Of a stretch of 64,000 nucleotides of DNA, positions 33,168 through 52,875 are shown piece after piece. This DNA is from a candidate division KSB1 bacterium (GTDB lineage Bacteria; Zhuqueibacterota; Zhuqueibacteria; Oleimicrobiales; Geothermoviventaceae), in assembly GCA_034506315.1 (NCBI GenBank), contig JAPDPT010000004.1, positions 1-64,000 on the forward strand, read 5' to 3'. The position numbers and the translations under genes were made by a program. How positions within the stretch are numbered: position 1 is the stretch's first letter; each line of letters begins with the position of its first letter. The notes beneath the pieces were generated by a model. It searched no databases, had not been told where the DNA came from, and was given only the letters and a program-made list of their open reading frames with translations.

Positions 33168-33398
33168 GATGCACGACGGCAGGGGATCGGCGCACCTGCC
33201 GACCCCTTGCCACACCCAACACGGGATTCCAAAACGCGGCAGGCGGCGAAAAGCAGAGATGGTCGCGCCATCCCCCTATTCGTTTGCACGAGACAAGAGA
33301 GGAACGGTACCGCAAGCTCAACGGCTCTCGAGAACGCAGGGGGGCGTGACTCATGAGACGCCGGGCCGGTGCCAAGGAGATGCAATGGAGCATGGGTG

Positions 33399-34649
33399 AT
33401 GGATCTGCCAGCTATTCGCGTGCCCGTTCTTGGGGCGAGCGGGTTCATGGCGATCGTGATGCTTCTTCACATGATCGTGTTCGCGAACTTCGTCGTGGGG
33501 GGACCTGTCCTGGCGGTGATCACCGAATACCTCAGCCTGAGGAGGAAAGATCCGCGCTTTGACCTTTTCGCTCGCCACCTGGCGAACATGCTCTTCGTCG
33601 CCATGGTCCTCGGTCCGGTCCTCGGCGTAGGGATCGTGGCGCTCAACACAGGGCTGTTCCCGCGCTTCTTTACCACGGGTGTGCGTGTGTTCTTCTGGCC
33701 TCTGGCCGCGGAGATCGTGGCCTTCCTCCTCGAAGCCATCTTTATCGTGGCTTACAAGTATACCTGGGACCGTCTGCGGGATCGCCGGGGCCTCCACATG
33801 AGCCTTGGCCTGTTGGGAGCCCTGGGTTCGTGGTCGAGCATGGCATTGATCAATGGCCTGGCCTCCTTCCTTCTCACGCCCGGCCGGTGGGTCCAGACAA
33901 GGCGCACCGTGGATGCCGTGTTCAACCCGTCCTTCCTGCCCTCGCTTTTGCACCGGGCTGTGGCGAGCCTCTCCCTGGCTGCCTTCTTTATGGTCGGGTA
34001 TTCCCTGTACATGCGGAAGCGAGAGCCGGAACCGGGCTATGCCGCCTGGGCCCTCCGCTACGCCGGTCTGTGGGCGGTCGTCACCACCTCGCTCCAGTTC
34101 GTGCCCGGAGTCTGGTACCTGCAGAAGCTCCCAGCGGAGGTGTGGGCTAAGTTCCTGGCCGGCCCGCTTACACCCTACTGGTTCGGCGGGATCCTGCTGG
34201 CCGCCGCCGCCATCTTGATCCTTTACTACGCAACTCACCACGCAAGTCGAGCACTTGCCTGTCCCGCGGTCCGAGGCGCCATGTGGCTTTCCATCCTCAT
34301 GGTCGTTGCGACGACCTGGCTCATGGGCTTCAGCCGCGAGCGGGCCCGCAAGCCCTACCTTATCTACGGGGTGATGTACGGAAATCAGCAGTGGGTCCAG
34401 GCGGAAGCCCCAAGCCAAGAAGCCGGAGCGGTCGACGCCAAAGCCCTCTTCCGCACTCACTGCGCAGCGTGTCATCCGGCCATAGGCGGCGACCCCTTCA
34501 CCAAAGCCAGACAGTACCCGACCTCAGATTCCCTGGCTGCGTTCCTCCGCGACCCCGCGGCCCACGGCAAACCCAACATGCCCCCCTTCGACGGGACCGC
34601 GGAAGAGCTGCAAGCCCTTGTCGAGCACCTACGGACTGGCGGTGAATAG
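33399..34649 (+). CDS. CydA-like oxidase subunit with C-terminal cytochrome c domain
   Basis: A 416-residue membrane protein (ATG 33399 behind GGAG; upstream starts possible). About eight helices resemble cytochrome bd subunit I: His24 in MLLHMIVFANF matches the haem b595 ligand, Glu105 and Glu112 in PLAAEIVAFLLEAIF match the Glu pair of the O2 site (one residue closer than in E. coli CydA), and His in LLHRAVASLSLAAFF matches the b558 ligand. After residue 340 a soluble c-type domain carries THCAACHPAIGG and the Met-ligand segment NMPPF. No quinol loop is apparent. It likely reduces O2 with electrons from its own haem c, paired with the next gene; no cydB is present. Confidence 0.85.
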   Translation: MDLPAIRVPVLGASGFMAIVMLLHMIVFANFVVGGPVLAVITEYLSLRRKDPRFDLFARHLANMLFVAMVLGPVLGVGIVALNTGLFPRFFTTGVRVFFWPLAAEIVAFLLEAIFIVAYKYTWDRLRDRRGLHMSLGLLGALGSWSSMALINGLASFLLTPGRWVQTRRTVDAVFNPSFLPSLLHRAVASLSLAAFFMVGYSLYMRKREPEPGYAAWALRYAGLWAVVTTSLQFVPGVWYLQKLPAEVWAKFLAGPLTPYWFGGILLAAAAILILYYATHHASRALACPAVRGAMWLSILMVVATTWLMGFSRERARKPYLIYGVMYGNQQWVQAEAPSQEAGAVDAKALFRTHCAACHPAIGGDPFTKARQYPTSDSLAAFLRDPAAHGKPNMPPFDGTAEELQALVEHLRTGGE

Positions 34650-34703
34650 ACACACCTCCGACTCTCGGGAGTCAGGCCGTTACAAGATCGAGGAGGAGCG
34701 GAG

Positions 34704-35963
34704 ATGAAACTGCCGCCCGTACGATTGCCTGTCAGCAGTTCGGCGGCCATTGGAGTCGTTGCCCTAATCCACATCACGCTGGTGACCCTGGTGATCCTGG
34801 GGCCCTTGATCCTCGTCGCCACGGAATATCTCGGCCTCCGCAGACGCGACGAGCGCTACGATGCGCTGGCCAAACGCCTCACTCAGATTCTGATCGAGAC
34901 CACCGTGATCGGCGGCATTTTCGGTAGCGCCCTGGTCGTGCTGCTCTTGGGACTATTCCCGGCGCTGATCACCACCCTCTTCAACATCTTCTTCTGGCCC
35001 TTGGTGCTTCAGCTCTTAGCCGGCTATCTCCTGAACCTCTTATTCCTGTGTCTGTACTACCTCCGCTGGGAAGCCATGAGGGAACGGCGCGCTGGCCACA
35101 TGGTCCTCGGCCTGGCTGCCGGTGCAGCGCCCTTGCTTGTGGCTGCGGTCTTCAACGCCGGCGTAACCTTCATGGGGACACCCGGGCGATGGCCTCAGAC
35201 CGGCAACCTGTGGCACGGGGTGTTCAATCCCACCTTCCTGCCAGGGCTCGTGCATCGGGCGGTCGCCAGTCTCGCTTTGGTGGGGGCGCTGGTCGTTGCC
35301 CAAGCCCTGTGGCGATCCAGACGTGGCGCTCCGGCAGATGGGACGATCTTCGAGATCCGGTACGGCAGCCGGCTGGCTGCGTTTGCCACACTTTTCCAAG
35401 TTCTCCCTGGCCTCTGGTACTACCTCGCTCTTCCGGCGGCCGCTCGCGATCTGCTGTGGGCGGACGTCTACGGCCTCTGGCTGGGCGGAATTCTGGCAGG
35501 AGCTATCGCCGTCGCGCTTCTGATCGTCTACGGAGTGGGGGCGCAAACGGGCCCCTCCCATCGGAGTCTGTGGGCGGCCATCGGACTTCTCGTCGCAAGC
35601 CTTTGGCTCATGGGGTGGACGAGGAGCGTAACGCGCGGCCACGACCTCATCGCCGGAATCATGGATTCCGGGCAGCAGTTTCGAACCCTGCCCGCCCCTC
35701 TGGTCCCCACGGCGAGCGGCGAGGCCCTTTTCGCCCAAAATTGCGGCATGTGCCATCCGGGCCTGGCCGGCGATGCCATCGCGAAGGCGAGAAAATACTC
35801 TTCGGACGAAGAGCTGAAGAGCTTCTTGCGGGATCCCGCCGCCCGCGGCATCGCCATGCCTCCCGTACAACTGTCGGAAAACGAACTGGAGACACTCCTG
35901 CGTTACCTTCGGCAGCAAGGCGAAATCCGGCCCAAGCAAGGCGGATCGGAAGGGGATCGGTAG
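34704..35963 (+). CDS. Second CydA-like subunit with C-terminal cytochrome c domain (A-prime)
   Basis: A 419-residue paralogue of the preceding gene, 54 bases downstream, ATG behind AGGAGGAGCGGAG. The two His ligands are kept (LIHITLVTLV near residue 23; LVHRAVASLALVG), but the Glu pair of the active site is replaced: PLVLQLLAGYLLNLLF has Gln and Asn. The c-domain has QNCGMCHPGLAG and AMPPV. Loss of the catalytic Glu residues while keeping the fold is the pattern expected for the non-catalytic partner of a CydA-CydA-prime heterodimer. Confidence 0.85.
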   Translation: MKLPPVRLPVSSSAAIGVVALIHITLVTLVILGPLILVATEYLGLRRRDERYDALAKRLTQILIETTVIGGIFGSALVVLLLGLFPALITTLFNIFFWPLVLQLLAGYLLNLLFLCLYYLRWEAMRERRAGHMVLGLAAGAAPLLVAAVFNAGVTFMGTPGRWPQTGNLWHGVFNPTFLPGLVHRAVASLALVGALVVAQALWRSRRGAPADGTIFEIRYGSRLAAFATLFQVLPGLWYYLALPAAARDLLWADVYGLWLGGILAGAIAVALLIVYGVGAQTGPSHRSLWAAIGLLVASLWLMGWTRSVTRGHDLIAGIMDSGQQFRTLPAPLVPTASGEALFAQNCGMCHPGLAGDAIAKARKYSSDEELKSFLRDPAARGIAMPPVQLSENELETLLRYLRQQGEIRPKQGGSEGDR

Positions 35964-37252: not shown

Positions 37253-38446
37253 GTGAGCCTCAATTATCGGAAGCTTCTGGTCGCAGTCGATGGATCCATC
37301 TGGTCCCGCTGGGCCACGGAGTGGGCCATTCGCGTTGCCCAGCATTGCGGGGCGGAAGTCCACGCCCTCCACGTTTACGCTGCGAGGCTCCACGAGACCC
37401 GTTTCCAGCAGATGGAACCGGCGCTGCCCGACACGTACCAGAAGGAAGCGAATCTGGCGCGGCTACGGCGCACGCACGCTGCCCTCATTGGGGAAGGGCT
37501 CCAGCTGATCGCCCAGTCCTACCTGCGGGAGGCGGAGCGCCGGGCCCGGGAGCTGGGCGTGGCGTTCACTCCCGTCCTTCGGGAAGGGAAACACTTCGTG
37601 GAAATCCTGAGATACGGGAAGGAGTCGCAAGCCGATCTGCTGGTGCTTGGAGCCAAAGGACTCGGCGGCTCCGAACGTGTTCCGCTGGGCAGCGTGGCCG
37701 AGCGCGTCCTGTGGGCTGCGGAGTGCGATCTACTTATCGTCCGCTCCGCTTTTCCTACCGGCAGCGGCGGCATCCTGGTGGGGGTCGACGGCTCGCCCTA
37801 CAGCCTGGCCGCTGCCCTCCAGGCATCCCGTTGGTCCCATTGCCTCAGCCTTCCCGTGATCCTGGCAGCAGCTTACGATCCGGCATTCCACACCGGCGTG
37901 TTCCGGACCGTGGCCGATGTTCTGCCGGAAGACGCGGCAGCTCGGTTCGATTTTCGGAGCCAGGAACGTCTGCACAATGAGATCATCGACCAGGGGCTTG
38001 CCCATCTCTACCGGTCGTATCTGGAGCAGGCGGCGAGCGTAGTCGCCAGCCCCCATCCGCCCGAAACGCTTCTCCTGGAGGGGAAGCCCTTTGAGGCGCT
38101 AGTGGAGCAGGCCCTGCCGGGCCGCGTGAGTCTGATCGTGGTCGGACGTCACGGCGCTCATCGTGAGGGGATCCACCCCATCGGCTTCAACGCTGTCGCC
38201 GTGGCGCGCTACTGCCCCGTTTCCGTTCTGATTTCGAGCGCAGAGTCCGCCCCGCAGGACCTCCGCGAAGTGGCCTCCGAAAAAACGGTGACGTGGGATC
38301 CGCAAGTCGAGGAACGGCTTCAGCGGATCCCCAGCTTCGTCCGTGGGATGGCCAAGAAGACGATCGAGCGCTTTGCGAAAGAGCAGGGCTACGACCGGGT
38401 TACCCTGGACGTCTACGAACGCGCCAGGAAACATTTCGGGATGTAG
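37253..38446 (+). CDS. Double UspA protein with C-terminal PCP_red domain
   Basis: A 397-residue cytosolic protein, GTG start one base after the previous stop. Residues 1-165 form a first universal stress domain ([19 protein letters not shown], then [20 protein letters not shown]), and 175-345 a second ([16 protein letters not shown], then [12 protein letters not shown]). The last 50 residues match the C-terminal domain of protochlorophyllide reductase subunit BchB/ChlB (PCP_red): [20 protein letters not shown] followed by an IERFAKEQG / [14 protein letters not shown] segment. No photosynthesis gene is nearby. It probably binds ATP and regulates or protects another complex. Confidence 0.85.
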
Positions 38447-38610
38447 CGGCCGATAGGGAAGGATCGCGCGGTTGGAGGCGGGCCCGGGGAAAGGGCTTGT
38501 GCTCGGGGCGACCCGCGCCGGTGAACGGGGGCTGGAGGAGCGTCGGCGCCGTTCGGGGTAGGGAGCACAAGAACCGCCGGCAGCCGGTAATCGAAAAAAG
38601 GGATTGGCAC

Positions 38611-40008
38611 GTGCGGTACATCTGCCAGGTTTGCGGCTACACATACGACCCGATGCAGGGTGACCCCAGTCAGAACATCCCGCCGGGGGTTCCGTTCGAG
38701 GCTCTGCCGGCCTCGTGGGTCTGTCCCGTCTGCGGCGCGAGTCGGTCCCTGTTCGAACCCGAATCTGCTCTGGAGGAAGGGGAAGAACGACCTGCGGTGT
38801 CCGGTCGGGTGGTGATCGTGGGCAACGGGGTGGCCGGGTTCACCGTGGCGCGAGAGCTGGCCAGAAGGAGCTCCGGCCTCGAGATCCACGTTCTTGCCGA
38901 AGAACCTCACCACTACTACGCCCGACCTCAGCTCCCCCGTCTGCTTTCAGGCGAACTGGAGGTCAAGGACCTGGTCTTCTACGACGAGACCTGGTACGAG
39001 AGGCGCGGGATCCGCGTCCATCTGAGCGATCCTGCGGTGGCCATAGATCGCTTGGGGCGCGGGGTCTCCCTGCGCAGCGGGGGCACCCTTGGCTACGACT
39101 GGCTCGTCCTGGCGTGCGGAAGCCGGCCCGCCGTCCCGCCCATTCCGGGCGCTGGGAAAGACGGGGTCTTTACCCTGCGGACCATCGAAGACGCCTTAGA
39201 GATCAGGCAACGGGCGCGCAACGCCGAGCAGGTGGTGATTCTCGGAGGGGGCCTATTGGGGCTGGAGGCCGCCCGGGGATTTCGCAAACTGGGCCTCGCG
39301 GTGACCGTGGTGGAAATAGCCCCTTACCTCTTGCCACGCCAATTGGACGGAGCCGGGGGCGAGATCCTGAGGCAGCTCCTGGAGCAACAGGGAATTCGGT
39401 TTGTTCTCGGGATCCCCGTAGCGGAGTTCGTCGGAGAACGCTCCGTGAAGGGCGTCCGGCTTGCGGACGCCCGCACGCTCGAGACGGAGCTTGTGCTCCT
39501 CAGTGCAGGGATCCAGCCGGAGGTGGAATTGGCTCGAGCATCCGGACTGGCCTGCGAAAGGGGTATTCTCGTAGACGATCATCTGCGCACAGAGGACCCG
39601 CGCATCTACGCCTGTGGAGATGCCGCTCAGCACCGGGGCCGCATCTACGGGATCATCCCACCCGCGATCGAGCAGGCCCTCGTGGTCTCGAACAACGTGC
39701 TCGGCAGAGAAGCCATGTACGCGGGATCGGTCCCCGTGGCGACGCTCAAGGTAGCCGGCATCGACTTAACTTCCGTGGGCGAGGTGCACGCTGAGGGATC
39801 CGACGTCGAACATGTTCGTGCCTCCCGCCCCGAGGAAGGCCGCTACCGAATGATCGTGTTACGGAATGGGAGAGCAATAGGGGCCGCCCTCCTCGGCCTT
39901 CGCCAGGAGGTGCCCCGGGTTCTTCAGCTCGTGGCTCAGCAGGCTAACCTTGGACCGGTGCGGAAGCAGCTTGAGGACCCCGACTTTCGCCTCGACGAAT
40001 GGGGCTGA
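38611..40008 (+). CDS. Rubredoxin fused to NADH:rubredoxin oxidoreductase
   Basis: A 465-residue fusion with GTG start 38611 (AGGGA, 8-base gap). Residues 1-50 are a full rubredoxin ([13 protein letters not shown] and [16 protein letters not shown]). Residues 65-465 are a class I pyridine nucleotide-disulfide type flavoprotein: FAD motif [21 protein letters not shown] motif [17 protein letters not shown], and the second FAD motif [10 protein letters not shown]. No redox-active CxxC is present, as in rubredoxin and ferredoxin reductases. It should move electrons from NADH through its own rubredoxin to the downstream flavodiiron protein or to the ferritin-like proteins. Confidence 0.9.
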
Positions 40009-40225
40009 AGTAACAGGAGAACCAATTCCGAGCTACACCCGAGGGGGTCGGGTTATCTGAGCTGCCAGAGAGATTCCGGGACGGGAGGAACGGAGCGCCT
40101 CCCGGATCGGCGCTCGAGTTGCGGTTCCCGAGAGGGGGCCGCTCCGAATTCCCTCTGGGGACGAATCGAGCCGTATCAGACACAAGAACTTGAACTCGTA
40201 GACGCAGCAAGAGGAGGTGACAGAC

Positions 40226-41401
40226 GTGGGTGCACTTCGTATTACGGACGGTGTCTACTGGGTCGGTGTCTTGAACGCGAATCTGCGCTGGTTCGACATC
40301 GTTGTTCCGACCGAACACGGGACCACCTACAACTCCTATCTCATTGTTGATGACAAGATCGCCCTCATCGACACCGTGCACGCCGACTACACCCCCCTGT
40401 TTCTAGAAAAGCTCGCCTCCGTGGTGGATGTGAGCAAGATCGACTACGTGATCGGCCACCACGCCGAGATGGACCACTCCGGGTCCTTGGCTCGAATCCT
40501 GGAGCTTGCCCGCAACGCCGAGGTTGTGAGCTCCAAAGCCGGCGTGCGCTATCTGCAGCAGGTGGCCCACCGCGAGTTCAAGGCGCGCGTAGTGGGCGAT
40601 GGAGACGAACTGCGGCTTGGCAACAGGACTCTCCGCTTCCTCGCGGCTCCTCTCTGGCACTGGCCCGAGACCTTTTTCACCTTTGCGGTGGAGGACGGAA
40701 TTCTATTCTCCTGCGACGGCTTCGCGTCCCACTACGCCGACGAGAGGATGTTCGACGACCAGATAGGAGACTTCACGGCCGACTTCCGCCTCTACTATGA
40801 CCACATCATGAGGGTCAACAAGAGCAAGATCTGGCAGGCGGTTCAGAAGGTCGAAAAACTCGATGTCCGGATCATCGCGCCGAGCCATGGGCCTATCCTC
40901 CGGCAGCGCGCCCAGTGGGCGATCCAGAAGTACGCCGAGTGGAGCCGGCCGGTGGAGAAATCCGACAAGCGCGTCCTGATCTTCTACGTTGCCGCGTACG
41001 GGAACACGGCGCGCATGGCCAAGGCCGTGGCGGAAGGGCTTCGGGAGGCTGGGGTCAACGTAAGCCTCTACGACGCCCAGGGACTGGACATCGTTTCCCT
41101 CTTCGATGCCATCGAAGCGGCCGATGGACTCCTCTTCGGATCCCCGACGTTTAATGGGGACGCGGTCAAGCCTATTTGGGACGTGCTTTATTGGCTGTCC
41201 TTCGTAGAGGTGAAAGGAAAAAAGGGCGGAGCTTTCGGTTCCTACGGCTGGAGTGGAGAAGCCACGCGGCTGATCGAGGCCCGTCTTCAGGACCTCAAGC
41301 TGTCGGTCCCCGTGCCGGCCGTTAAGGCGACCCTGGTGCCAACCGAGGAAGATCTCGCCCGCTGCCGGCAATTCGGACGTGACTTCGCTGCCCAGCTGTG
41401 A
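40226..41401 (+). CDS. Flavodiiron protein (rubredoxin:oxygen oxidoreductase, FprA type)
   Basis: A 391-residue A-type flavoprotein; GTG 40226 is preferred, five bases behind GAGGAGGTGA. The N-terminal metallo-beta-lactamase-like domain keeps the diiron ligands: HHAEMDHSG (H-x-E-x-D-H), WHWPETFF, SCDGFASH and APSHGP. The C-terminal flavodoxin domain begins VLIFYVAAYGNTARMAKAV and continues GLLFGSPTFNGD. Such enzymes reduce O2 to water, or NO to N2O, using rubredoxin; the rubredoxin-reductase fusion lies 217 bases upstream. No fused rubredoxin at the C-terminus. Confidence 0.95.
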   Translation: MGALRITDGVYWVGVLNANLRWFDIVVPTEHGTTYNSYLIVDDKIALIDTVHADYTPLFLEKLASVVDVSKIDYVIGHHAEMDHSGSLARILELARNAEVVSSKAGVRYLQQVAHREFKARVVGDGDELRLGNRTLRFLAAPLWHWPETFFTFAVEDGILFSCDGFASHYADERMFDDQIGDFTADFRLYYDHIMRVNKSKIWQAVQKVEKLDVRIIAPSHGPILRQRAQWAIQKYAEWSRPVEKSDKRVLIFYVAAYGNTARMAKAVAEGLREAGVNVSLYDAQGLDIVSLFDAIEAADGLLFGSPTFNGDAVKPIWDVLYWLSFVEVKGKKGGAFGSYGWSGEATRLIEARLQDLKLSVPVPAVKATLVPTEEDLARCRQFGRDFAAQL

Positions 41402-42642: not shown

Positions 42643-45273
42643 TCAGGGATCGCCGGTGCCGCGCGGCACGATCACCTTCGCCGTTGCCGGCGCAGTGAGG
42701 CGCAGGGGGGGACGGAGCGCAATCTTCCCGTAGTCCCGCAAGACCAGGGTCGCCACCGAGAGGGAACCGTGTTTTACCTCCAGGACCACGCGAACCTCGG
42801 AGGCAGCTGGCTCGAGAGATACCGTACCCCAGGCGTAGCCATTGGACCAGAACCAGGTCACGGGACTTTCGGGGGCGCGGAAGACAAGCGTTTTCTCCAC
42901 ACCGGAGTAGTGAAAGCCTGTGATGGCGAGTACTGCGGCCCACGACGCCATGGCACGCGCGTAGTGATGGCCGCATTCCGCTTCGTCGAACGGATTTCGC
43001 CGCCGGCCATCGTAGCGGGCGCGCACATCGCGGATGACCCGCAACCCCTCTTCCACCATGCCCTCGTACAGCATCCCCACGGCCGCAGTGTACTCAAAAC
43101 CGGTCATGACCTCATTGAAGTAGGAGAATGGGAACTTGGGGCGCCCCTTGGGGTAGGCGGCCATGAGAAGAGCTGCCTCATCGCCCGCCGCGTAGGTCCG
43201 CATGTTGTTGAAATGGTCGAACAGGCTTTCGCGGCGATTGTACCGCAGGATGCTCGTCAGAGCCGCTCGTACGTGTTCCCGCTCCACCAGGTAACCGAGT
43301 CCGCAGATGTGCGCCATGTACTGGCCGACGAGCTGGTCCACCAAGCACCCGTTGGCGAGCTGGTAATCCGGATGCTCAAGATCCTTCGCCCCGGCGGAAC
43401 CGCGGAACATCGGGAGAACGGTTGGGTCGACTTGTGGGACCAGGACCTTGTGTTCGTAGTATTCCCCGTTGAACAGGTTCTCATCGATCCAGCGGCTCCC
43501 GTTTTCGAAGAGAGCCCGGCAAGTCTGGGCGAAATCGTGCTCACCGAGGTAGCGGGCCATCTCTTCAGCCGCTCGTAGGGCCCCCAGGTACCAGATGCCC
43601 ATCTGCGGATTCGGTCCGAAATACTCGACGTCCATGGTATTGTGCTGAATCCCCTCCATCACGCCGTCTTTGTCCGCGTCCCAGCCGCCGGGGATCCAGC
43701 AGAATTCCAGGGCCCTGCGGACATTGGGCCACAAGCGTCGCAGAAAACCGTCGTCGCCCGACAGCTGCCAATCACGGTACATTTTCATGATGGTGCCCAT
43801 CTGGCCGTCGGCGGCGGCAAAGCCGCGCAGCTCCCGGTTTTTCTCGAGGGGAAGGGCAACGCGGAAATTCATCAGGCCGTCCGGGTGGGTGGCATAGCCG
43901 AACTCTACTTCGCGCATGCTCTGCGCCAGGGTTCCGAACAGGAAAGCGGTGGCCTGCTCATAGTTCCACACGTGCGTGCAGGATCCGTGGCAACAGCCGC
44001 CATCGTCGAAGGTTCCCTCCCAGCCCAGGAGGTGTCCGCTCGGGATGCGGAAGCAGGTGTTGGAACGAAGCGTGCTCAGATTGAACAAGGCTGCTTCCTT
44101 CACCTCCAACGGCAGGTCGCTCCCGACCAAGGCATTGACGAATTCGATGGTCTTCTCCTCCAGCATCGGAAGCTGCGGCACTACCTTCTCTACCACGTCC
44201 CACGCATCCTTGAACTGCCTTGCGTAGTAATTGCCGACGATCTCCTTCCCGCTCCAATCCTGTCGGTTGGGAAAGTGCCAGGCAATGAGAAAGCGCACGA
44301 GATGGGTCGCGCGGGGAGGGATCCGGAAACTCACGGCAAGGGAAGCCAGGGGGGTATCGGAATTTGGTTCGTAGTTCTGGTCGAACCGGCCGTTCTCGGC
44401 GAAATCGTCCCACACGTCCAGCAGCGTGCCTCCCCAGAAGCGAAGAGGGGTTGCGGTGCGATAGGAAACGCCCTCCTCGGCAAGGGTGACAAAGGCGATG
44501 GTTCCCCACTGGGGGGCCTCCTTGGCCACACCAGCAGACCACATATAGATGCCCTGAAACCCCTTGCCTTTGCGGAAGTCGTTGCGGTTCTGCTTCGCCC
44601 CGGTCACGACGAACTTGTTGCTCCAGGTCCGGGTCAGCTCGTGCCCGTCCATTCCGATGAAGTTCTCGAAGTTGCCGCAAATGGAAACGTCCAGAGGGCT
44701 ATCCGTCTCGTTCCGGACCTCGTAGGTCAACACGAAGACCGGCAGCCCACTGGCTTCGGGATCTCCAGGTATTAGGGGATTGAAAGCTTCCGCCGAGACG
44801 CGCACGGGCATGTTTTCGTCCCAAAGGTTCACACGACCAAAGGGATAGGACGCCTCAAAGGTAGCGTGGCGGAACCTGGGCAGGCCGTGGTTGGGCACGG
44901 CCGTCCCCATCATGCTCTCGTATTCGTGATCTGCGAGGGGGCCGAGGAGGGCTTTGGTCTGGGTGAAGCCATCCGGGTACCGAATCCAGATGGCGAAGAA
45001 GGGTAGGACGTGTTCCAGCGAGGCGTGCACCCCAGGTCCCGCGTGGAAATCTTTCGCCGCTCGATTGACGATCTCCCAGTCCCTGAGCTCGCCGCGGCCA
45101 CCGAACGAGATGGTGCCGGTGCCGATCCCGCCCACGGGAAGCGCAATCCGTGCGATGTGCTGCTCATCGTAGCGCCGGAGCACGGCCCATCGCGACCCTG
45201 CGCTCGTGGCAGAGGCCAGGAAGAGCAGCCCTGTAAACCCCAAGAGCGCACATTTAGCGACCGCACACAACAT
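42643..45273 (-). CDS. Secreted GH116 beta-glucosidase/glucosylceramidase-like enzyme
   Basis: An 876-residue protein with a signal peptide (ALLGFTGLLFLASATSAG). The N-terminal beta domain starts with IALPVGGIGTGTISFGGRGE; the catalytic (alpha/alpha)6 barrel includes DGGCCHGSCTHVWNYEQATA and HNTMDVEYFGPNPQMGIWYL, where the Asp fits the general acid described for bacterial GH116. GH116 enzymes hydrolyse beta-glucosides or beta-xylosides. Start ATG 45273 behind GAGGAGGTGGAAG. It is transcribed alone, downstream of a terminator, and seems unrelated to the cytochrome genes around it. Confidence 0.88.
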   Translation of the reverse strand: MLCAVAKCALLGFTGLLFLASATSAGSRWAVLRRYDEQHIARIALPVGGIGTGTISFGGRGELRDWEIVNRAAKDFHAGPGVHASLEHVLPFFAIWIRYPDGFTQTKALLGPLADHEYESMMGTAVPNHGLPRFRHATFEASYPFGRVNLWDENMPVRVSAEAFNPLIPGDPEASGLPVFVLTYEVRNETDSPLDVSICGNFENFIGMDGHELTRTWSNKFVVTGAKQNRNDFRKGKGFQGIYMWSAGVAKEAPQWGTIAFVTLAEEGVSYRTATPLRFWGGTLLDVWDDFAENGRFDQNYEPNSDTPLASLAVSFRIPPRATHLVRFLIAWHFPNRQDWSGKEIVGNYYARQFKDAWDVVEKVVPQLPMLEEKTIEFVNALVGSDLPLEVKEAALFNLSTLRSNTCFRIPSGHLLGWEGTFDDGGCCHGSCTHVWNYEQATAFLFGTLAQSMREVEFGYATHPDGLMNFRVALPLEKNRELRGFAAADGQMGTIMKMYRDWQLSGDDGFLRRLWPNVRRALEFCWIPGGWDADKDGVMEGIQHNTMDVEYFGPNPQMGIWYLGALRAAEEMARYLGEHDFAQTCRALFENGSRWIDENLFNGEYYEHKVLVPQVDPTVLPMFRGSAGAKDLEHPDYQLANGCLVDQLVGQYMAHICGLGYLVEREHVRAALTSILRYNRRESLFDHFNNMRTYAAGDEAALLMAAYPKGRPKFPFSYFNEVMTGFEYTAAVGMLYEGMVEEGLRVIRDVRARYDGRRRNPFDEAECGHHYARAMASWAAVLAITGFHYSGVEKTLVFRAPESPVTWFWSNGYAWGTVSLEPAASEVRVVLEVKHGSLSVATLVLRDYGKIALRPPLRLTAPATAKVIVPRGTGDP

Positions 45274-45334: not shown

Positions 45335-45366
45335 GGGCTCGCGCCCGAGTTTCCGAGCACGAGCCC
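45335..45366 (-). terminator. Terminator after the 14-haem cytochrome operon
   Basis: On the minus strand GGGCTCG (45366-45360) pairs with CGAGCCC (45341-45335), followed by TTATTGTT. It separates the cytochrome operon from the GH116 gene. Confidence 0.65.
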
Positions 45367-45402: not shown

Positions 45403-46584
45403 CTACTTCTTCCCGTGGCAATAGCCGCAGAAGCCTTCCCCCGCTCGGGCCCGTACATGGCAGTTAAAGCAGACAGCGCCTGCGTCGTGATGGAACTCCG
45501 CCCCCTCGCCGAAGCGATCTGCGAACCCGGCTCCGTGCGTCCGCGGGTCCGTACCCCTCACCCCGTCAAAGTCCGTGTGACACAGGAGGCAATTGGGATC
45601 GGATCCCTGGACGTCGTGGCAGGCCGCACAACGTTCGATGTCGCGTTCCGCCAGCTCTGCGTGCTTTCCCCCGCCCGAGCCGACGGCACCGCGGCGCGCT
45701 CCCCAATCGGGCCCGCCGTGCCAGGCCGGCCGATGCAGGAAGGCCCCCGCACGGCTCCGCTCCGTGTGGCACTCCACACAGGTCCGATTCCCCTCGTGGC
45801 AGACCTGGCATTGCTCGGCCTTGCCCTCCGCCTCCAGGGAGTGCCAAAAGCGGTAGTTCAGGTCGTGCACCCGCGAAAGAACCAAGGGAGTTTGCCCCGA
45901 AGCTGGTCGGAAGCTTGCGAAGTATTCCGTCGGCAGAACCTTAGCCGTCACGAGGTCGACAGCCTCGTGGCAGTCCTGGCACTCGCGGTTCTGGTGGCAG
46001 TGGGCGCAATCCTTTTCACCTCCGGCCCGGAGGCGTACCATGTGTTCGTGCGCCCAATCGGAGGCGTGATCGAGCGGCAGAATCTCCACTTCCCCCACGT
46101 GACACAGCTGGCACTCCTGCGAGACGAGGGTCCCGTTGTGACAAACGTTGCAGCTCTCCCGCGGCGGAATCTTCTTACCGTCGCCAAGATCCACCTCGTC
46201 GATCCCTTTGTGACAGGCGAGGCACTGCAGGCGGGTCTCGGCGACGTGGGTGGCGTGGCTGAACCGGAACGAGCGAACCGGGTTGGCCAAGGCCTCCAGT
46301 CTATCCTGGGACACGTGGCAGAGGAGGCACTGCTTCTCGTCCGTTACGTCGTGGCAGGAGCCGCATTGTTCCATCGTGGGCAGCAGACGATCGGAGGACT
46401 CCTTGCTCTCCGCTGCCTCGGCGTGACAGACATTACACTCTGCCCCTACCTCCCGGACGTGCTTCCTATGGGAAAACTTAATGAGTTCCTTCCTGCTCTG
46501 GCCCCAGGCGCCCAACCACAAGAGCGACGCGAGCGCCGGGATGACCGCGATCGGTAACCATGAAGCCCTTACCGCGTTCCTCAT
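45403..46584 (-). CDS. Periplasmic 14-haem c-type cytochrome
   Basis: A 393-residue exported protein with an N-terminal signal or anchor (LPIAVIPALASLLWLGAWG). I count 14 CxxCH sites, the last ending four residues from the C-terminus (FCGYCHGKK). Repeats of the type KFSHRKHV and RFSHATHV before haem pairs are typical of the c3/c7 family, where the His supplies the sixth ligand. Spacing of one haem per 25 residues suggests a wire-like carrier. It is the third gene of a run with an 11-haem lipoprotein and an outer-membrane barrel, so it is the likely periplasmic part of a transmembrane electron conduit. Confidence 0.92.
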   Translation of the reverse strand: MRNAVRASWLPIAVIPALASLLWLGAWGQSRKELIKFSHRKHVREVGAECNVCHAEAAESKESSDRLLPTMEQCGSCHDVTDEKQCLLCHVSQDRLEALANPVRSFRFSHATHVAETRLQCLACHKGIDEVDLGDGKKIPPRESCNVCHNGTLVSQECQLCHVGEVEILPLDHASDWAHEHMVRLRAGGEKDCAHCHQNRECQDCHEAVDLVTAKVLPTEYFASFRPASGQTPLVLSRVHDLNYRFWHSLEAEGKAEQCQVCHEGNRTCVECHTERSRAGAFLHRPAWHGGPDWGARRGAVGSGGGKHAELAERDIERCAACHDVQGSDPNCLLCHTDFDGVRGTDPRTHGAGFADRFGEGAEFHHDAGAVCFNCHVRARAGEGFCGYCHGKK

Positions 46585-46622
46585 CGCCCGATCTCCCGTT
46601 GGCCCTGAGCGAAACTCCGTCT

Positions 46623-47933
46623 CTATCCGGCGATGCGGGTTCGGAAGCCATATGTGACGCGCAGGAGAGCTCGCACGTCTACGTCCACGTGTCGGTTCTG
46701 CAGTCCCTGCAGCTCCATGTCCACCCGCAATCCCCTTGCCGGCAACCAGGTGAGGCCCAAGATCTCAGCCAACGTGTGCTCCCATTCGCCGTCCAACCCG
46801 TACTCCTGGTAGGTGCTGTAGTTGGAACTCACGTGCAGCCAAAGCCGCCGATCCAAGCGCCAGTGGTAATCGCCCGTTAGGCCCCAACGGTCACCGCCGT
46901 AGCCGGACTGATGAGCCACACCCAACGTTCCCCCCCGCGCGCGGATGCCCACCGCGAAGCGAAGACTCGACTCCTCCTCAAAAGCGAGGTACGCGACACG
47001 ACCGAAAAGTCCCACCTCGCGGGAAAAAGCGTAGAGCAAACGTGCTGCCATTTCCTGGCTGCTCTTCTGGGAAAACACGCTGAAGATCGAGTTCCCGTCG
47101 ACCAGGGGATTGCGGAAGATGTAGTCGCCCCCTACTTCCAGCTTGCCGAAGCGAGTGCGGATGTTCCCCTCTGCACGCTGGAGCCGATTCAGGAGCAAGT
47201 CGTAGTCGAGTCGGCCTGACCATTCGGCCCGACCAGTCTGTTGCCAGAGATCTATTCCCACACGGCGCTGCTGCAGAGCCGAGATCTTCTCCAGAAGCCA
47301 TCGATGGGCGGTGTACTCGCCGGGAAGGAGGTAGACCTTACGGGCTCTGCTTTTTTGCACGAAGCTCACGGCAAGGCGCGTTCTCTGCCACCCCGTGCTC
47401 CGCAGCCGGCCTCCCAGCATGTGGCTCTCGTTCCACGAGTCCAGCTTCACGCCGTGAACCAACGGCATCTGGAGGCCGGCAAACGCCTCCAGCTCCGTTT
47501 TCTCCAGCAAGCCGAAGCGGGTAAAGACGCCGTCCAGTGTCCCGAAACCCACCCCCGCGAAAATCCTTTGGCGCCCGAGCCGGACCTCTCCCGTCGGGAA
47601 GTCGTAGCGCAGATAGGCACTGTAGAGCCAGAAGCGCGGATCGTCAACGGTGTTCCCGCGCAGGTCGGTGTTGGCCAGCCCGTACAGGTGCAAGGACAGG
47701 TTCCGGCCAGCGATCTTCGTGGCGGAGAGATCGAGAGTCTGGTAGTACCGGATGTGCTGACTCGTGGCCTCGTAGCCGGGGGCTCGTTCGAACCCGTAGA
47801 AAGTCGAAGAAAGCCGTCCGCGCAGCTCCTGGCCGTGCAAATCGCAGAAGGCCACAATGAGAGCGGCCAGAGCAGCTTCGAAGCGAACCCACCGGCTCAG
47901 TCGCAGCCTCGGCAACTTCATGGGAGTCCTCAC
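46623..47933 (-). CDS. Outer-membrane beta-barrel of a porin-cytochrome conduit
   Basis: A 436-residue protein (GTG/ATG at 47933, or ATG 47921 MKLPRLRLSRW) with a signal peptide (FEAALAALIVAFCDLHG). The mature part is a series of amphipathic beta-strands with short turns and frequent Tyr, Trp and Arg at strand ends (HIRYYQTLDLSATKIAGRNL, RFWLYSAYLRYDFPTGEVRL), as in large porins. No haem motif. It lies between the 11-haem and 14-haem cytochrome genes with gaps of 30 and 38 bases, the arrangement of MtrB/PioB/OmbB-type sheaths. No sequence family can be confirmed by eye. Confidence 0.75.
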   Translation of the reverse strand: MRTPMKLPRLRLSRWVRFEAALAALIVAFCDLHGQELRGRLSSTFYGFERAPGYEATSQHIRYYQTLDLSATKIAGRNLSLHLYGLANTDLRGNTVDDPRFWLYSAYLRYDFPTGEVRLGRQRIFAGVGFGTLDGVFTRFGLLEKTELEAFAGLQMPLVHGVKLDSWNESHMLGGRLRSTGWQRTRLAVSFVQKSRARKVYLLPGEYTAHRWLLEKISALQQRRVGIDLWQQTGRAEWSGRLDYDLLLNRLQRAEGNIRTRFGKLEVGGDYIFRNPLVDGNSIFSVFSQKSSQEMAARLLYAFSREVGLFGRVAYLAFEEESSLRFAVGIRARGGTLGVAHQSGYGGDRWGLTGDYHWRLDRRLWLHVSSNYSTYQEYGLDGEWEHTLAEILGLTWLPARGLRVDMELQGLQNRHVDVDVRALLRVTYGFRTRIAG

Positions 47934-47963
47934 CTGCTCGTGGTTGCCCTGTCCTCGATGGCG

Positions 47964-49187
47964 CTACGGAACCCGTTCCACGACGACTGACTCGTTGGCC
48001 TGGACTTCCTCCGAAACCATCGCCCCCTGGCTGACTTTCTGTTGCAAGTAATCGCGCGTGAGGTACAGCGCGGGGTTCAGGTGACAAGGTCCGTAACAGC
48101 CGCTGTTCTGCGGCGTCTTTTTCTGGATGTTGTGCGGACTGGCGTACGTCCACGTCGGGGCCCCAGCGAAGTTTCCGAGGTTGACCCCCCACTCGCTGTA
48201 GCTCGTGGGGTTAACCGGAGCATGGCGCAGAACCACCCAGTCCCAAGGATGGCGGTCGTCCTTTACCGGGTTCTTGCCGATCCGGAAATCGTCCTCCGAG
48301 AGGGCCAGCTGACTTGTCTTCGTCCCCACGTGGCACCCGTAGCAGTTGCGATATCGTTGGGCGTGGCAAACCTGGCACTGGACCTTCCTGACCATCAGGC
48401 GGTGGTAGACATTGGTCGTGGTTTCGGAGAGGGCCTCCGGGTGGCAGTTAGTACAGCGGGGCAGATCGGCCACGTGGTAGCGGGTGGAATCGAGCCTCCC
48501 GCTCCCGTGGAACCCGCCGCGGGGGTGGCAATCGAAGCAGGTCATCCCGCGCTCGTAGTGCACGTCGGGTTGCGTGCCGGGAACCTGCCCTGTAAACTCC
48601 CTAATCGTCCGCTCACCGTGGCAACGGAAACAGCCCTCCTCCACGCTCGGCTCGCCCGTAATCGAATGCATACGCCCTGCCGAGACTCCTGCCCCCGCAG
48701 AAGGACGCACGTGGCACTTGCCGCAACTGGCGTGGCAGGCACCGCACGCCTCCTCAAACATCGCCCTCGCATTTCCAGCTACCGGCGAGCCCGTGCGCCT
48801 CTCGATCGCCCGTAAGAAGCCCTGCTGAGATCCGTGCGCACTTTGCTCGTATAGTGCAGCCACCCGGCCGTGGCATGACGCGCAAACGTTCGCCCCTCGA
48901 CCCGATGGATCCCTGATGACCCCCCGATGCGCCTGCTCCTTGGTGGCGGGTCCTGCCTGGCCTGCGTGGCAACCCGTGCAGCCTCGCCGCCCGTGGACGC
49001 TGGTCACAAACTCTTGGCTCACTCCCATCTGAGGCTGATAGGAGGCAGCCACGCCGATCACGTGACACGTTTCACACGTCCCTTCGCCAGGATCAAGGGC
49101 TTCCGTTGGTGAACGCTTCGTACAGCTCGCGAGGCCCACAAGACCCAAAATCGCCGCGACGAGGAGAAGACCTCGAAACCTACCCAT
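47964..49187 (-). CDS. Multihaem cytochrome c lipoprotein (10 CxxCH + 1 CxxxCH)
   Basis: A 407-residue protein; ATG 49187 behind GGAGGAAGG. The lipoprotein signal is GLLLVAAILGLVGLASC, so the protein is lipid-anchored, probably in the outer membrane. I count ten CxxCH sites (CETCH, CTGCH, CASCH, CGACH, CGKCH, CFRCH, CFDCH, CTNCH, CQVCH, CYGCH) and one CYGPCH, a CxxxCH variant that may also bind haem. First gene of the conduit operon; its likely role is the surface-exposed or outer-leaflet terminal that meets the final electron acceptor or donor. Confidence 0.9.
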   Translation of the reverse strand: MGRFRGLLLVAAILGLVGLASCTKRSPTEALDPGEGTCETCHVIGVAASYQPQMGVSQEFVTSVHGRRGCTGCHAGQAGPATKEQAHRGVIRDPSGRGANVCASCHGRVAALYEQSAHGSQQGFLRAIERRTGSPVAGNARAMFEEACGACHASCGKCHVRPSAGAGVSAGRMHSITGEPSVEEGCFRCHGERTIREFTGQVPGTQPDVHYERGMTCFDCHPRGGFHGSGRLDSTRYHVADLPRCTNCHPEALSETTTNVYHRLMVRKVQCQVCHAQRYRNCYGCHVGTKTSQLALSEDDFRIGKNPVKDDRHPWDWVVLRHAPVNPTSYSEWGVNLGNFAGAPTWTYASPHNIQKKTPQNSGCYGPCHLNPALYLTRDYLQQKVSQGAMVSEEVQANESVVVERVP

Positions 49188-49425: not shown

Positions 49426-50304
49426 TCAAGACGACGCGCTTCCTTCGGACTCCACCGTGGGCGGCGGTGGCTCAGGAATGCCGGGGCGCCGGGAAACACC
49501 CGTGCGCTCCCCCGCCAGGGGCGCCGGTCGGTGGGGTTTCTTGAGCCTCCAGCGTCGGAGGAGGGCCAGTCGCTTGAGCAATTGAATGCCGAGGGCGGGA
49601 TCCACCCCTTTCGGACAAGCCTCGGAGCAAGCCCCTGCCAGATGACAACGCCACGGTCCCTCCGTGCCGGCGGCCACCTTCAGCCTCTCGTCCATTCCCG
49701 CATCACGCGTGTCCTTGCAGTAGCGATAGGCCTGAGCCAAAGCCTGCGGCCCGAGGTACTGAGGATCTGTGGCCACGGTAGGACAGGCGGTCAGGCACAA
49801 CCCACACTTGATGCAGTAGGTGAACTGGAGGAATTCCTCCAGCTCCTCAGGCTTCTGGAGGAATTCGCCCGTCGGCTGCTCCAGCTCGCGTGGGTCGCGG
49901 ATCACGTACGGGCGAACGGTACGATGCTTCTCAAAGAGGGGCCCAAGATCCGGGACCAGGTCCTTCACCACGGGATAGTTCGGCATCGGCCGCACGTCCA
50001 CGGTGTCGGAACCGAGCTCCAGGATCTGGGTTTGGCAGGCCAGGCGAGGAAAGCCATTGATGAACATCCCGCAGGATCCACACACACCCATCCGGCAGCT
50101 GAAGCGATAGGCCAGCGTGGAATCCAGATTATCCCGGACGTAATGTAAACCATCGAGCACTGTCATGCCCCGATAGACGGGGACCTGGAATTCCTGTACG
50201 TAGGCTTTCCCCTCTTCAGGCCGGAAGCGCTGCACCCGGAACCGAACGACTTTCACCACTTCTTCGCCGAAGCTCTGAGCCGTTTGCTCCCTCTCGCGAT
50301 CCAT
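49426..50304 (-). CDS. sdhB: Succinate dehydrogenase/fumarate reductase iron-sulfur subunit
   Basis: A 292-residue SdhB/FrdB. The N-terminal ferredoxin domain binds [2Fe-2S] through CRMGVCGSC and the later LAC; the C-terminal domain has YCIKCGLCLTACP and CHLAGACSEACPKG for [4Fe-4S] and [3Fe-4S]. The last 40 residues form a Pro-rich, low-complexity tail not seen in standard family members. Final gene of sdhA-sdhC-sdhD-sdhB. It carries electrons from the flavin subunit to the membrane quinone site. Confidence 0.95.
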   Translation of the reverse strand: MDREREQTAQSFGEEVVKVVRFRVQRFRPEEGKAYVQEFQVPVYRGMTVLDGLHYVRDNLDSTLAYRFSCRMGVCGSCGMFINGFPRLACQTQILELGSDTVDVRPMPNYPVVKDLVPDLGPLFEKHRTVRPYVIRDPRELEQPTGEFLQKPEELEEFLQFTYCIKCGLCLTACPTVATDPQYLGPQALAQAYRYCKDTRDAGMDERLKVAAGTEGPWRCHLAGACSEACPKGVDPALGIQLLKRLALLRRWRLKKPHRPAPLAGERTGVSRRPGIPEPPPPTVESEGSASS

Positions 50305-50317
50305 CGGCTTTTCCCTC

Positions 50318-50680
50318 CTACCGCACGTAGGCCACGATCGCCGCCACGGTTCCCAGAACGAAGAGAGAAATCCCGAGGGCCAGCACTAACCATTGGATCA
50401 CGCGCGCTGCCACACGGCCCGGGTTCAGCTCGAGCAGGATGTTGCGCAAGCCGTATAGACCGTGGTACAGGGCCGTCCCCAACAGAAGCACGTAGGCTAC
50501 CGTGAAGAGAAGCTTCTTACTTCGTACGACCACCGAAGTCCAGCTGAGGGGATCCGGATAGCCGGTGCCCATCGCAGCCAGGATGTCCTCCAGATGCATG
50601 ATGCCCATATGGACGGCCAGCAGCACAAGGATCACTATTCCCGCCGCCAGGTGCAGTGTCCACAACGTCGCCTCGCGCAT
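50318..50680 (-). CDS. sdhD: Succinate dehydrogenase membrane anchor subunit
   Basis: A 120-residue protein with three predicted helices, ATG 50680 behind GGGAGGAA. Candidate haem ligands are the His residues in LLAVHMGIMHLEDIL and TALYHGLYGLRNILL. Fourteen bases upstream of sdhB and 17 bases after sdhC. The assignment rests on the operon and the topology. Confidence 0.85.
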   Translation of the reverse strand: MREATLWTLHLAAGIVILVLLAVHMGIMHLEDILAAMGTGYPDPLSWTSVVVRSKKLLFTVAYVLLLGTALYHGLYGLRNILLELNPGRVAARVIQWLVLALGISLFVLGTVAAIVAYVR

Positions 50681-50696
50681 GCCTATTCCTCCCTGG

Positions 50697-51131
50697 CTAA
50701 TGGCCCAGAACGAAAAAGTCCCAGCCGCCGGCAACGATGAGCGCCGCCGAAAGGATCATCAGGGCAAGGAACAGTGGGCGTTGTCGCCGGTGTGCCACGG
50801 GGTAGGGGTAAACGGGGCGCCCTGGGCGTCCGAGCGTGAAGCCCAGTTCGCCCAGGATCAGCCGTACCCCGTTGAGGGCGTGGTAGGCAAATGCGACGTA
50901 GACGAGAAACTCCCCAAACCGGAAGACCGGCTTGTTCAAGAACCCCATCACCGACTCCCACGCCCCTTGCCCAAGGGCCCGGGAGGAGGTGACGAAGACG
51001 TGGAGAAGAAAATAGGCCAGAATCCCCAGGCCGGTGATCCGGTGGAGGAGATAGGCATACCGCTCCACCCCGAAACGTCCGGCGTAGGCCCACCCGAGGA
51101 TGCCCAGGCGGCCTGTCCTTGCACGGTTCAT
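50697..51131 (-). CDS. sdhC: Succinate dehydrogenase cytochrome b subunit
   Basis: A 144-residue, three-helix protein; ATG 51131 behind GGAGGAGCTGC. It has the SdhC-type HRITGLGILAYFLLHVF helix with the haem-region His residues and the FAYHALNGVRLILGELG segment. It pairs with SdhD to bind haem b and quinone. Confidence 0.92.
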   Translation of the reverse strand: MNRARTGRLGILGWAYAGRFGVERYAYLLHRITGLGILAYFLLHVFVTSSRALGQGAWESVMGFLNKPVFRFGEFLVYVAFAYHALNGVRLILGELGFTLGRPGRPVYPYPVAHRRQRPLFLALMILSAALIVAGGWDFFVLGH

Positions 51132-51156
51132 CGCAGCTCCTCCGCTCTCGCCGGTC

Positions 51157-52875
51157 TCAGTACTTCCGCTCAACTGGCTTCCAGGTGTTGATCACCACTG
51201 GCTTGTACTCCAGGCGGGGGCCTTCTGGCGTGCGGAAGGCAAGGGTGTGCTTGAGCCATTTCTCGTCGTCGCGCTTTGGGAAGTCGCGGCGGGCGTGGGC
51301 CCCTCGCGATTCCTCCCTTGCCAGGGCCCCGGCCAAGAGCACCTCGGCCACGTCGATCAGGTTTTCGGTCTCCAGAGCGTGGATGAGGTTGGTATTGTAA
51401 GCAGACCCCTTATCCTGGATCGAGATGCTGCGGAAGCGCTCGCGGATCTGGCGCACGCGCTCCAGCCCCGCGCGCATTTCCTCGCCCGTGCGGAAGACGC
51501 CCGCTGCCCTCACCATCGTATCGCGCAGTTCCTGACGGAGCCGGTACGGGTTCTCCGGGCCTTCGCGCTTGAGGAGATCGCTGAAGATACGCTCCTGCTC
51601 TCGCCTCACCTGGTCCTCCGGCGCCCTGGGGATTTCGGTCATCTGCATGGCGTACTCGGCAGCCTTCCTCCCCGTAATGGCACCCCAAACCAGACACTCA
51701 GCCGTCGAATTCGTACCGAGGCGATTGGCACCGTGCAAACTGACAGCCGCGACCTCTCCCGCCGCCCAGATGCCTTCCACGCGCGTCTTACCGTCGATAT
51801 CCGTCTCCACGCCGCCCATTGAGTAGTGGGCCACCGGACGGACCGGGATGGGCTCGTCAATGGGGTCAAGGCCCAGGAACTTCAGGGTCACCTCGCGGAT
51901 GAGGGGCAGTCTCTCGAGGATCTTTTGCCGGCCCAGATGCCGCAGATCGAGGTGGAGGTAATCGAGTCCTCGCGGCCCCTTGAAGCCGCGACCCTGCTCG
52001 ATCTCGGTCATCATAGCCCGCGAGATGACGTCGCGGGGGGCAAGCTCCATCCGCTCCGGCGCGTAATGGGCCATGAAGCGCTCCCCCCGGTTATTGAGCA
52101 GGTAGCCGCCCTCTCCGCGGCAGGCCTCGGTCATCAGGATCCCGCTCGGGATCAGACCCGTGGGATGGAACTGCAGGAACTCAACGTCCTCAAGCGGGAT
52201 CCCAGCTCGATAGGCCAGAGCCAACCCGTCGCCGGTCACTGTCTGAGAGTAGGTCGTGAAGCCGAAGAGAGTCCCCGCCCCTCCGGTGGCAATGATCAGG
52301 GCTTTCCCTTCCATCACGTAGAACTTGCCCGTAGCCATCTCAATGAGGGTAAGCCCCCGGAAACGGTTGTCCTCCACGAGGATCGAAGTCGCGAACCACT
52401 CGCTGTAACCCTTCCAGTTGTCGTACTTGAGGAGCGTATCGTAGAGGGTCTGCATCTCAAAGAAGCCGGTCTTGTCCTCGGCGAAGGTGGCTCGCGGGAA
52501 GCTATGTCCCCCGAACGGCCGCTGAGCGATTCGGCCGTCCGGCTCCCGCGACCACGGGATACCCCAGTGATCGAGGAGGAAAATCTCCTCTGGCATGCTG
52601 CGCACGAAGCGGTGCACGACATCCTGGTCGGCAAGAAAGTCGCTGCCTTTGACCGTGTCCCAGGCGTGAAGTTCGAAGCTGTCGCCCTCCTCCGGGCGTA
52701 GGACTGCGGCCGTCCCCCCCTCGGCGCACACCGAGTGGGCCCGCATGAGCTGGACTTTGGAAACCAGAGCGACGTTCACTTTCCCGCCGCTCACCCGGCA
52801 GGCCTCGACGGCTGCCCGCAATCCTGCCAGCCCCGATCCCAGAATGATCAAATCGTGTCGGATAACGTCGGCCAT
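51157..52875 (-). CDS. sdhA: Succinate dehydrogenase/fumarate reductase flavoprotein subunit
   Basis: A 572-residue flavoprotein. FAD-binding motif LIILGSGLAGLRAAVEA near residue 10; the covalent-flavin region is MRAHSVCAEGGTAAV; the active-site region is GGHSFPRATF; the capping segment GANRLGTNSTAECLVWG is near residue 385. It oxidises succinate to fumarate, or the reverse. First gene of the sdh unit, 258 bases downstream of the fumarase genes. Whether the enzyme runs as dehydrogenase or reductase cannot be read from the sequence. Confidence 0.95.
   Translation of the reverse strand: MADVIRHDLIILGSGLAGLRAAVEACRVSGGKVNVALVSKVQLMRAHSVCAEGGTAAVLRPEEGDSFELHAWDTVKGSDFLADQDVVHRFVRSMPEEIFLLDHWGIPWSREPDGRIAQRPFGGHSFPRATFAEDKTGFFEMQTLYDTLLKYDNWKGYSEWFATSILVEDNRFRGLTLIEMATGKFYVMEGKALIIATGGAGTLFGFTTYSQTVTGDGLALAYRAGIPLEDVEFLQFHPTGLIPSGILMTEACRGEGGYLLNNRGERFMAHYAPERMELAPRDVISRAMMTEIEQGRGFKGPRGLDYLHLDLRHLGRQKILERLPLIREVTLKFLGLDPIDEPIPVRPVAHYSMGGVETDIDGKTRVEGIWAAGEVAAVSLHGANRLGTNSTAECLVWGAITGRKAAEYAMQMTEIPRAPEDQVRREQERIFSDLLKREGPENPYRLRQELRDTMVRAAGVFRTGEEMRAGLERVRQIRERFRSISIQDKGSAYNTNLIHALETENLIDVAEVLLAGALAREESRGAHARRDFPKRDDEKWLKHTLAFRTPEGPRLEYKPVVINTWKPVERKY

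What the first reader, a model, noticed from the sequence alone, without database searches (positions are those of the whole stretch)
45403..49187. Candidate new porin-cytochrome conduit for extracellular electron transfer
An 11-haem lipoprotein, a large barrel and a 14-haem exported cytochrome lie in one minus-strand operon with 30- and 38-base gaps and a terminator. The parts match Geobacter OmcB-OmbB-OmaB by role, but haem counts and order differ from the types I know.
Basis: partly seen in the sequence, partly recalled or inferred. Interest (0 to 1): 0.75.

Follow-up and report, generated by a model that had tools for sequence, protein, structure and literature searches.

The report
Porin-cytochrome outer-membrane electron conduit (KSB1)
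Three neighbouring genes in an uncultured KSB1 bacterium very probably build a haem-lined wire through the outer membrane; the kind is known, but this lineage is new, and cousins of one part carry selenocysteine, an amino acid that this species has lost from it.

Summary
In detail: an 11-haem lipoprotein (47964-49187), a barrel (46623-47921) and an exported 14-haem cytochrome (45403-46584), closely spaced on the minus strand and followed by a strong terminator. The organism is a KSB1 / Ca. Zhuqueibacterota MAG. The barrel is modelled with 22 strands at high confidence and matches no named porin family. It is bound to the 14-haem protein: in 53 barrels from KSB1 and Calditrichota the gene directly downstream is the same 12-14-haem family, and the two trees agree. 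This is a porin-cytochrome conduit with a conserved core and a changing lipoprotein partner, as in Geobacter. It is not MtrB/PioB. A 14-haem, 400-residue partner was described in Ignavibacterium album in 2014, Caldithrix was said to have a pcc-type porin, and PCCs were reported in KSB1 MAGs in 2023, so the kind is known. New here: the 11-haem lipoprotein belongs to a family in which 15 of 19 KSB1 members have an in-frame TGA (GE[GS]-U-GG, two Cys variants) with a SECIS-like hairpin, usually beside a double-rhodanese lipoprotein and the barrel, an arrangement resembling Geobacter extHIJKL. The window's genus lost both Sec and rhodanese. Electron direction and substrate are unknown.

The parts
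47964..49187 (-). 11-haem outer-membrane lipoprotein cytochrome (10 CXXCH + 1 CX3CH), Sec-less member of a family that elsewhere in KSB1 carries selenocysteine
49122..49124 (-). lipobox cysteine (LASC, residue 22)
   Evidence: sequence; lipid-anchor motif also present in the complete homologues
49014..49058 (-). region where homologues have the GE[GS]-Sec-GG segment; deleted here
   Evidence: alignment
46623..47921 (-). 22-stranded outer-membrane barrel of an unnamed family (alternative GTG start 47933)
   Evidence: no Pfam/NCBIfam/PDB match
45403..46584 (-). exported 14-haem cytochrome, proposed core wire through the barrel
45335..45366 (-). intrinsic terminator (14-bp stem, TTATTGTT tail)

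Best explanation
The three genes encode a trans-outer-membrane electron conduit of the porin-cytochrome kind. The 22-strand barrel sheathes the 14-haem cytochrome, which carries electrons across the outer membrane. The 11-haem lipoprotein is the outer-membrane-anchored exchange partner. Electrons would come from the quinone pool through inner-membrane multihaem cytochromes (an 11-haem/b561 fusion and NapC/NrfH-like proteins occur in the genome) and could pass on to secreted cytochromes with T9SS tails. Shown by computation: gene content, barrel fold, strict barrel/14-haem linkage and co-divergence, lipoprotein motif, presence of possible inner-membrane and extracellular partners. Inferred: insertion of the 14-haem protein in the barrel, orientation of the lipoprotein, direction of flow. 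The operon is a trimmed version of a four-gene set (Sec 11-haem lipoprotein, double-rhodanese lipoprotein, barrel, 14-haem) still present in a sister genus of the same family.
For: Barrel relative in 46 of 63 class genomes. In 53 of 53 distinct barrels examined the next cytochrome downstream on the same strand is the 12-14-haem family; one has a small ORF in between. Tree distances of the pair correlate at r = 0.74, 0 of 2000 permutations as high, and genomes holding two barrels (e.g. G043: L049 and L050) pair each with its own cytochrome clade. 22 strands, pLDDT 81. Upstream lipoprotein varies: GSu_C4xC type or similar with 6-21 haems, T9SS-tailed 7-haem, or the P0001 family, the pattern reported for Geobacter conduits (PMC6148476). 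Partners in the genome. Four-gene set in G012.
Against: No experiment. The 14-haem model is poor (pLDDT 45), so barrel insertion was not modelled. The lipoprotein could face the periplasm. Part of the tree agreement reflects shared species history.
Confidence: 0.77

Rival explanations
1. A chalcogen-oxyanion (selenite, tellurite, thiosulfate or polysulfide) reducing system at the outer membrane, like Geobacter extHIJKLMNOPQS: the lipoprotein cytochrome is the reductase fed through the barrel/14-haem wire, not a general Fe(III)/electrode conduit. (This overlaps with the best explanation: same wire, narrower substrate.)
For: Relatives place the P0001 family beside a double-rhodanese lipoprotein and carry a conserved Sec with a SECIS-like hairpin; weak ExtN/ExtM/ExtH profile hits; extI deletion impairs selenite/tellurite reduction (PMC5877670).
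Against: In the window's genus both Sec and rhodanese are gone, so the specific chemistry may be lost; ExtH/ExtM/ExtN hits are far below cut-off.
Confidence: 0.35
2. Electron uptake: the conduit takes electrons from outside (Fe(II), minerals, partner cells) for respiration or H2/CO2 metabolism.
For: Conduits are reversible; a Cyc2-like single-haem protein with a likely barrel lies at 30328-31518, and Cyc2 homologues were reported in KSB1 (PMC9769843).
Against: Nothing in the operon fixes direction; the genome has quinol-oxidising type multihaem proteins.
Confidence: 0.2
3. Ordinary nutrient porin next to unrelated periplasmic cytochromes.
For: Foldseek finds generic porins, expected for any barrel.
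Against: Strict linkage and co-divergence; no match to any porin family for the window's barrel and only scattered weak hits for relatives; Foldseek matches have TM about 0.3-0.55 and rmsd about 9-19 A.
Confidence: 0.05

Closest known systems
Ignavibacterium album Pcc cluster IALB_1837-1840 (PMC4245776)
   Same: 14-haem, about 400-residue periplasmic cytochrome beside a divergent Pcc porin; outer-membrane cytochrome with atypical haem motifs
   Different: Sequence not available here, so homology untested; its locus-tag order suggests that the outer-membrane cytochrome lies on the other side of the pair from the window's arrangement
Geobacter sulfurreducens extHIJKL(MNOPQS) (PMC6148476, PMC5877670)
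   Same: Barrel of about 45 kDa; relatives of the window operon have a rhodanese lipoprotein just upstream of the barrel and a selenocysteine multihaem cytochrome
   Different: Window lacks rhodanese and Sec; 11- and 14-haem partners; profile similarity to ExtH/M/N weak
Geobacter OmbB-OmaB-OmcB and ExtABCD
   Same: Barrel plus periplasmic plus lipoprotein cytochrome, conserved core with replaceable lipoprotein
   Different: Haem counts (8+12; 12+5+12) and order
Shewanella MtrCAB
   Same: Works the same way
   Different: 10+10 haems, 26-strand MtrB; no profile match to MtrB/PioB or above-cut-off match to MtrA/DmsE or MtrC families

Membership tests
Porin-cytochrome conduit (general kind) | outer-membrane barrel of about 18-28 strands | tested here: met
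   22 strands, pLDDT 81
Porin-cytochrome conduit (general kind) | multihaem cytochrome gene directly linked to the barrel and co-diverging | tested here: met
[quoted passage not shown]
   needs biochemistry
MtrCAB / MtoAB / PioAB | barrel of the MtrB/PioB family | tested here: not met
   no MtrB/PioB model of Pfam or NCBIfam matches any of 24 barrels at E<=1; no PDB sequence match
MtrCAB / MtoAB / PioAB | decahaem MtrA/DmsE-family core | tested here: not met
   P0003: no TIGR03508 match; P0001: 35.7 bits against cut-off 192; MtrA 6r2q_A only E=0.09 by profile
Geobacter OmbB-OmaB-OmcB Pcc | sequence homology of barrel to OmbB | not testable with these tools
   no OmbB sequence or model reachable
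Geobacter OmbB-OmaB-OmcB Pcc | 8-haem periplasmic and 12-haem lipoprotein | tested here: not met
   14 and 11 haems
Geobacter extHIJKL type | rhodanese lipoprotein next to barrel | tested here: not met
   absent in window and its genus; present in G012 and other KSB1
Geobacter extHIJKL type | profile match to ExtH/ExtKL/ExtM/ExtN | tested here: not met
   only sub-cut-off hits
Ignavibacterium album-type Pcc | 14-haem, about 400-residue partner | tested here: met
   393 aa, 14 haems; published description PMC4245776
Ignavibacterium album-type Pcc | sequence homology to IALB_1838/1839 | not testable with these tools
Bacterial selenoproteins (P0001 family outside the window's genus) | conserved in-frame TGA, Cys homologues, downstream hairpin, tRNA-Sec in the genome | tested here: met
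   15 TGA, 2 Cys; hairpin 98% paired, two double changes; tRNA-Sec by Rfam in most but not all carrier genomes, ARAGORN confirms the three checked

The most novel reading that the evidence does not exclude
KSB1 bacteria use an undescribed family of selenocysteine-containing 11-haem outer-membrane lipoproteins, paired with a double-rhodanese lipoprotein and wired through a 22-strand barrel plus 12-14-haem cytochrome, as a surface reductase for selenium, tellurium or sulfur species. The window shows a lineage that dropped Sec and rhodanese together and kept the bare conduit.
Probability: 0.33. Interest if true: 0.8.

Novelty: new variant of a known kind. Interest (0 to 1): 0.56.

Why it matters
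It defines a conserved barrel/12-14-haem pair across two candidate or poorly cultured phyla (KSB1 and Calditrichota); the barrel has no family model in Pfam or NCBIfam, so annotation pipelines pass over it. It also exposes an apparently unlisted selenoprotein cytochrome family tied to such conduits, and a natural experiment: concerted loss of Sec and rhodanese with retention of the wire, which makes the role of the selenocysteine in outer-membrane electron transfer testable.

Tried and rejected
PDB sequence search with the barrel and its profile: nothing. Foldseek: only generic barrels. AlphaFold2 of the 14-haem protein with 11 sequences: poor, not used. Plasmids and viral contigs: no relatives. 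Direct comparison with OmbB, ExtI, ExtA or IALB_1838 was not possible because none of these sequences could be reached. Rejected: nutrient porin; MtrB/PioB membership; chance CXXCH. Considered and not adopted: a functional link to the neighbouring GH116 glucosidase and SDH operon; the synteny with SDH was seen only in the same genus.

Full report
Observation. The first (47964-49187, minus strand) has a signal peptide with lipobox LASC, ten CXXCH motifs and one CX3CH. The second (46623-47921) has a signal peptide and no haem motif. The third (45403-46584) has 14 CXXCH and a signal without lipobox. The gaps are 30 or 42 nt (start-codon choice) and 38 nt. A 14-bp terminator hairpin with a T-rich tail follows at 45366-45335. 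The reversed window has no ORF with more than one CXXCH.

Organism. Twelve named loci came back for the barrel; seven are titled candidate division KSB1, the rest Calditrichota, Deferribacteres or plain bacterium. The nearest relative is the same-genus MAG RSWS12 (67%). I take the window to be a KSB1 / Ca. Zhuqueibacterota genome, 3.4 Mb, 99% complete.

Barrel. AlphaFold2 with 12 homologues gives 22 strands, mean pLDDT 81. Pfam, NCBIfam and PDB searches with the protein and with 24 family members give no credible family. In particular no MtrB/PioB model appears. Foldseek lists only generic barrels at TM about 0.3-0.55.

Linkage. A barrel relative occurs in 46 of 63 genomes of the class. I collected 53 distinct barrels from KSB1 and, using genomes of the phylum of L040 (a record titled Calditrichota), from that phylum. 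In every one the 12-14-haem relative of P0003 is the next cytochrome downstream on the same strand, nearly always within 150 nt (a few copies are cut by contig ends). Three further Calditrichota cytochrome loci had no recognisable barrel. Distances on the two trees correlate at r = 0.74 (0 of 2000 permutations as high), and genomes with two barrels (for example G043, loci L049 and L050) pair each barrel with its own cytochrome clade, so species history alone does not explain it. The 12-haem members match P0003 up to about residue 345, so the 14-haem form appears to carry two extra C-terminal haems.

Roles. The invariant partner (14-haem) is the best candidate for the wire inside the barrel. 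The upstream partner changes between lineages: 6-21-haem lipoproteins (the 21-haem one scored as GSu_C4xC__C2xCH), a 7-haem protein with a type IX sorting tail, or the P0001 family. Jimenez Otero et al. (PMC6148476) describe the same behaviour in Geobacter: conserved periplasmic part, replaced surface part. The window's genome has possible inner-membrane partners (663-aa 11-haem/cytochrome b561 fusion, L159; NapC/NrfH-like proteins, L154 and L157) and extracellular partners (16-haem protein with T9SS type A tail, L158; 8-haem protein with FlgD-like/T9SS-like tail, L161). Which of these actually connect is inference.

What the 11-haem lipoprotein is. P0001 has close homologues in 19 KSB1 genomes, itself included. 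All eleven haem sites align (one member, G037, misses one), including the CX3CH, which is CXXCH in G012. In 15 of the 19 the reading frame contains TGA in the motif GE[GS]-TGA-GG between the first and second haem sites; two have Cys there (TGT in G019, TGC in G020); only the window's genome and its genus mate G013 lack the segment. About ten bases after each TGA lies a 7-bp hairpin with loop NGTTN or close to it, 98% paired over 15 sequences, with two compensatory double changes; sliding the partner abolishes pairing. The hairpin is damaged in one Cys form (G020) and kept in the other (G019). Because this stretch is also coding (V-x-x-L-E-A-W), conservation alone is weak; the TGA/Cys exchange carries the main weight. 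tRNA-Sec scores above 60 bits in most carriers and in the window's own genome; four carriers (G045, G034, G038, G032) and G008 showed none at that level, which incomplete assemblies or the search's first filter may explain. The full Sec form has no NCBIfam match, and the 2026 selenoproteome review lists other multihaem selenoproteins (ExtKL, octahaem tetrathionate reductase, GSU2204), but I did not see this one in the passages read (PMC13188914).

Neighbours of the Sec form. In the eleven loci inspected outside the window's genus (including the two Cys-type contigs' G019) a rhodanese lipoprotein follows the cytochrome, in eight of them followed by the barrel. In G012, same family as the window, the order is Sec cytochrome, rhodanese lipoprotein (two PF00581 domains), barrel, 14-haem. 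The window and G013 have no such rhodanese anywhere. Thus Sec and rhodanese were lost together. The full set recalls Geobacter extHIJKLMNOPQS (rhodanese lipoprotein ExtH, barrel ExtI, Sec cytochrome ExtKL, further cytochromes and a cytochrome b), whose barrel is needed for normal selenite/tellurite reduction (PMC5877670). Profile matches to ExtH, ExtM and ExtN are far below cut-off, so this is likeness of composition, not shown homology.

Known or new. Porin-cytochrome clusters with a 14-haem, 400-residue periplasmic member are known from Ignavibacterium album (PMC4245776), a pcc-porin homologue was reported for Caldithrix abyssi (PMC6137239), and PCCs were noted in KSB1 MAGs from the Oslofjord tunnel (PMC10732223), whose MAGs supply loci L034-L036 here. 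I therefore file the operon as a new variant of a known kind. The Sec family and the concerted loss are the less expected results.

Limits. No experiment; the 14-haem fold was not modelled well; homology to OmbB, ExtI and IALB proteins could not be tested; direction and substrate stay open.

Noticed in passing
L164-L168, L170, L171, L173-L180 (P0001 homologues in other KSB1 genomes): Conserved in-frame TGA in GE[GS]-TGA-GG with a SECIS-like hairpin; two Cys variants (L169, L172): a selenocysteine 11-haem lipoprotein family without an NCBIfam model.
   Followed up: yes
L202:1431-2444 (G012) and L066, L068-L070, L197-L201: Double-rhodanese lipoprotein next to the Sec cytochrome, often just upstream of the barrel; absent from the window's genus.
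   Followed up: yes
L158:5343-7697 and L161:3-2636 (same genome as the window); L034:5876-7825 (G008): Multihaem cytochromes with type IX secretion (or FlgD/T9SS-like) tails, likely extracellular; in G008 one lies in the same gene run as the barrel and 14-haem genes.
   Followed up: partly
window 28916-31518 +: 5-haem cytochrome with a sub-cut-off ExtKL-like match (53 bits) followed by a Cyc2-like single-haem protein with a likely barrel (FARTYRLSCTTCH).
   Followed up: partly
window 33369-35960 +: Two tandem cytochrome bd subunit I-like proteins, each with a C-terminal cbb3-type cytochrome c domain.
   Followed up: no
window 31592-32763 + and 38293-41398 +: Two rubrerythrin-domain proteins, a rubredoxin/NADH-oxidoreductase-like protein (by sequence inspection) and a flavodiiron-like protein: an oxygen-defence set near the respiratory genes.
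   Followed up: no
window 42643-45273 - and 49426-52875 -: GH116 glucosidase directly downstream and succinate dehydrogenase/fumarate reductase genes directly upstream of the conduit; SDH-like synteny also seen in G013.
   Followed up: partly
L198-L201, upstream of the Sec cytochromes: A PAS-domain-like kinase and a small TPR-like protein repeatedly precede the Sec cytochrome/rhodanese pair, a possible dedicated regulator (by sequence inspection only).
   Followed up: no
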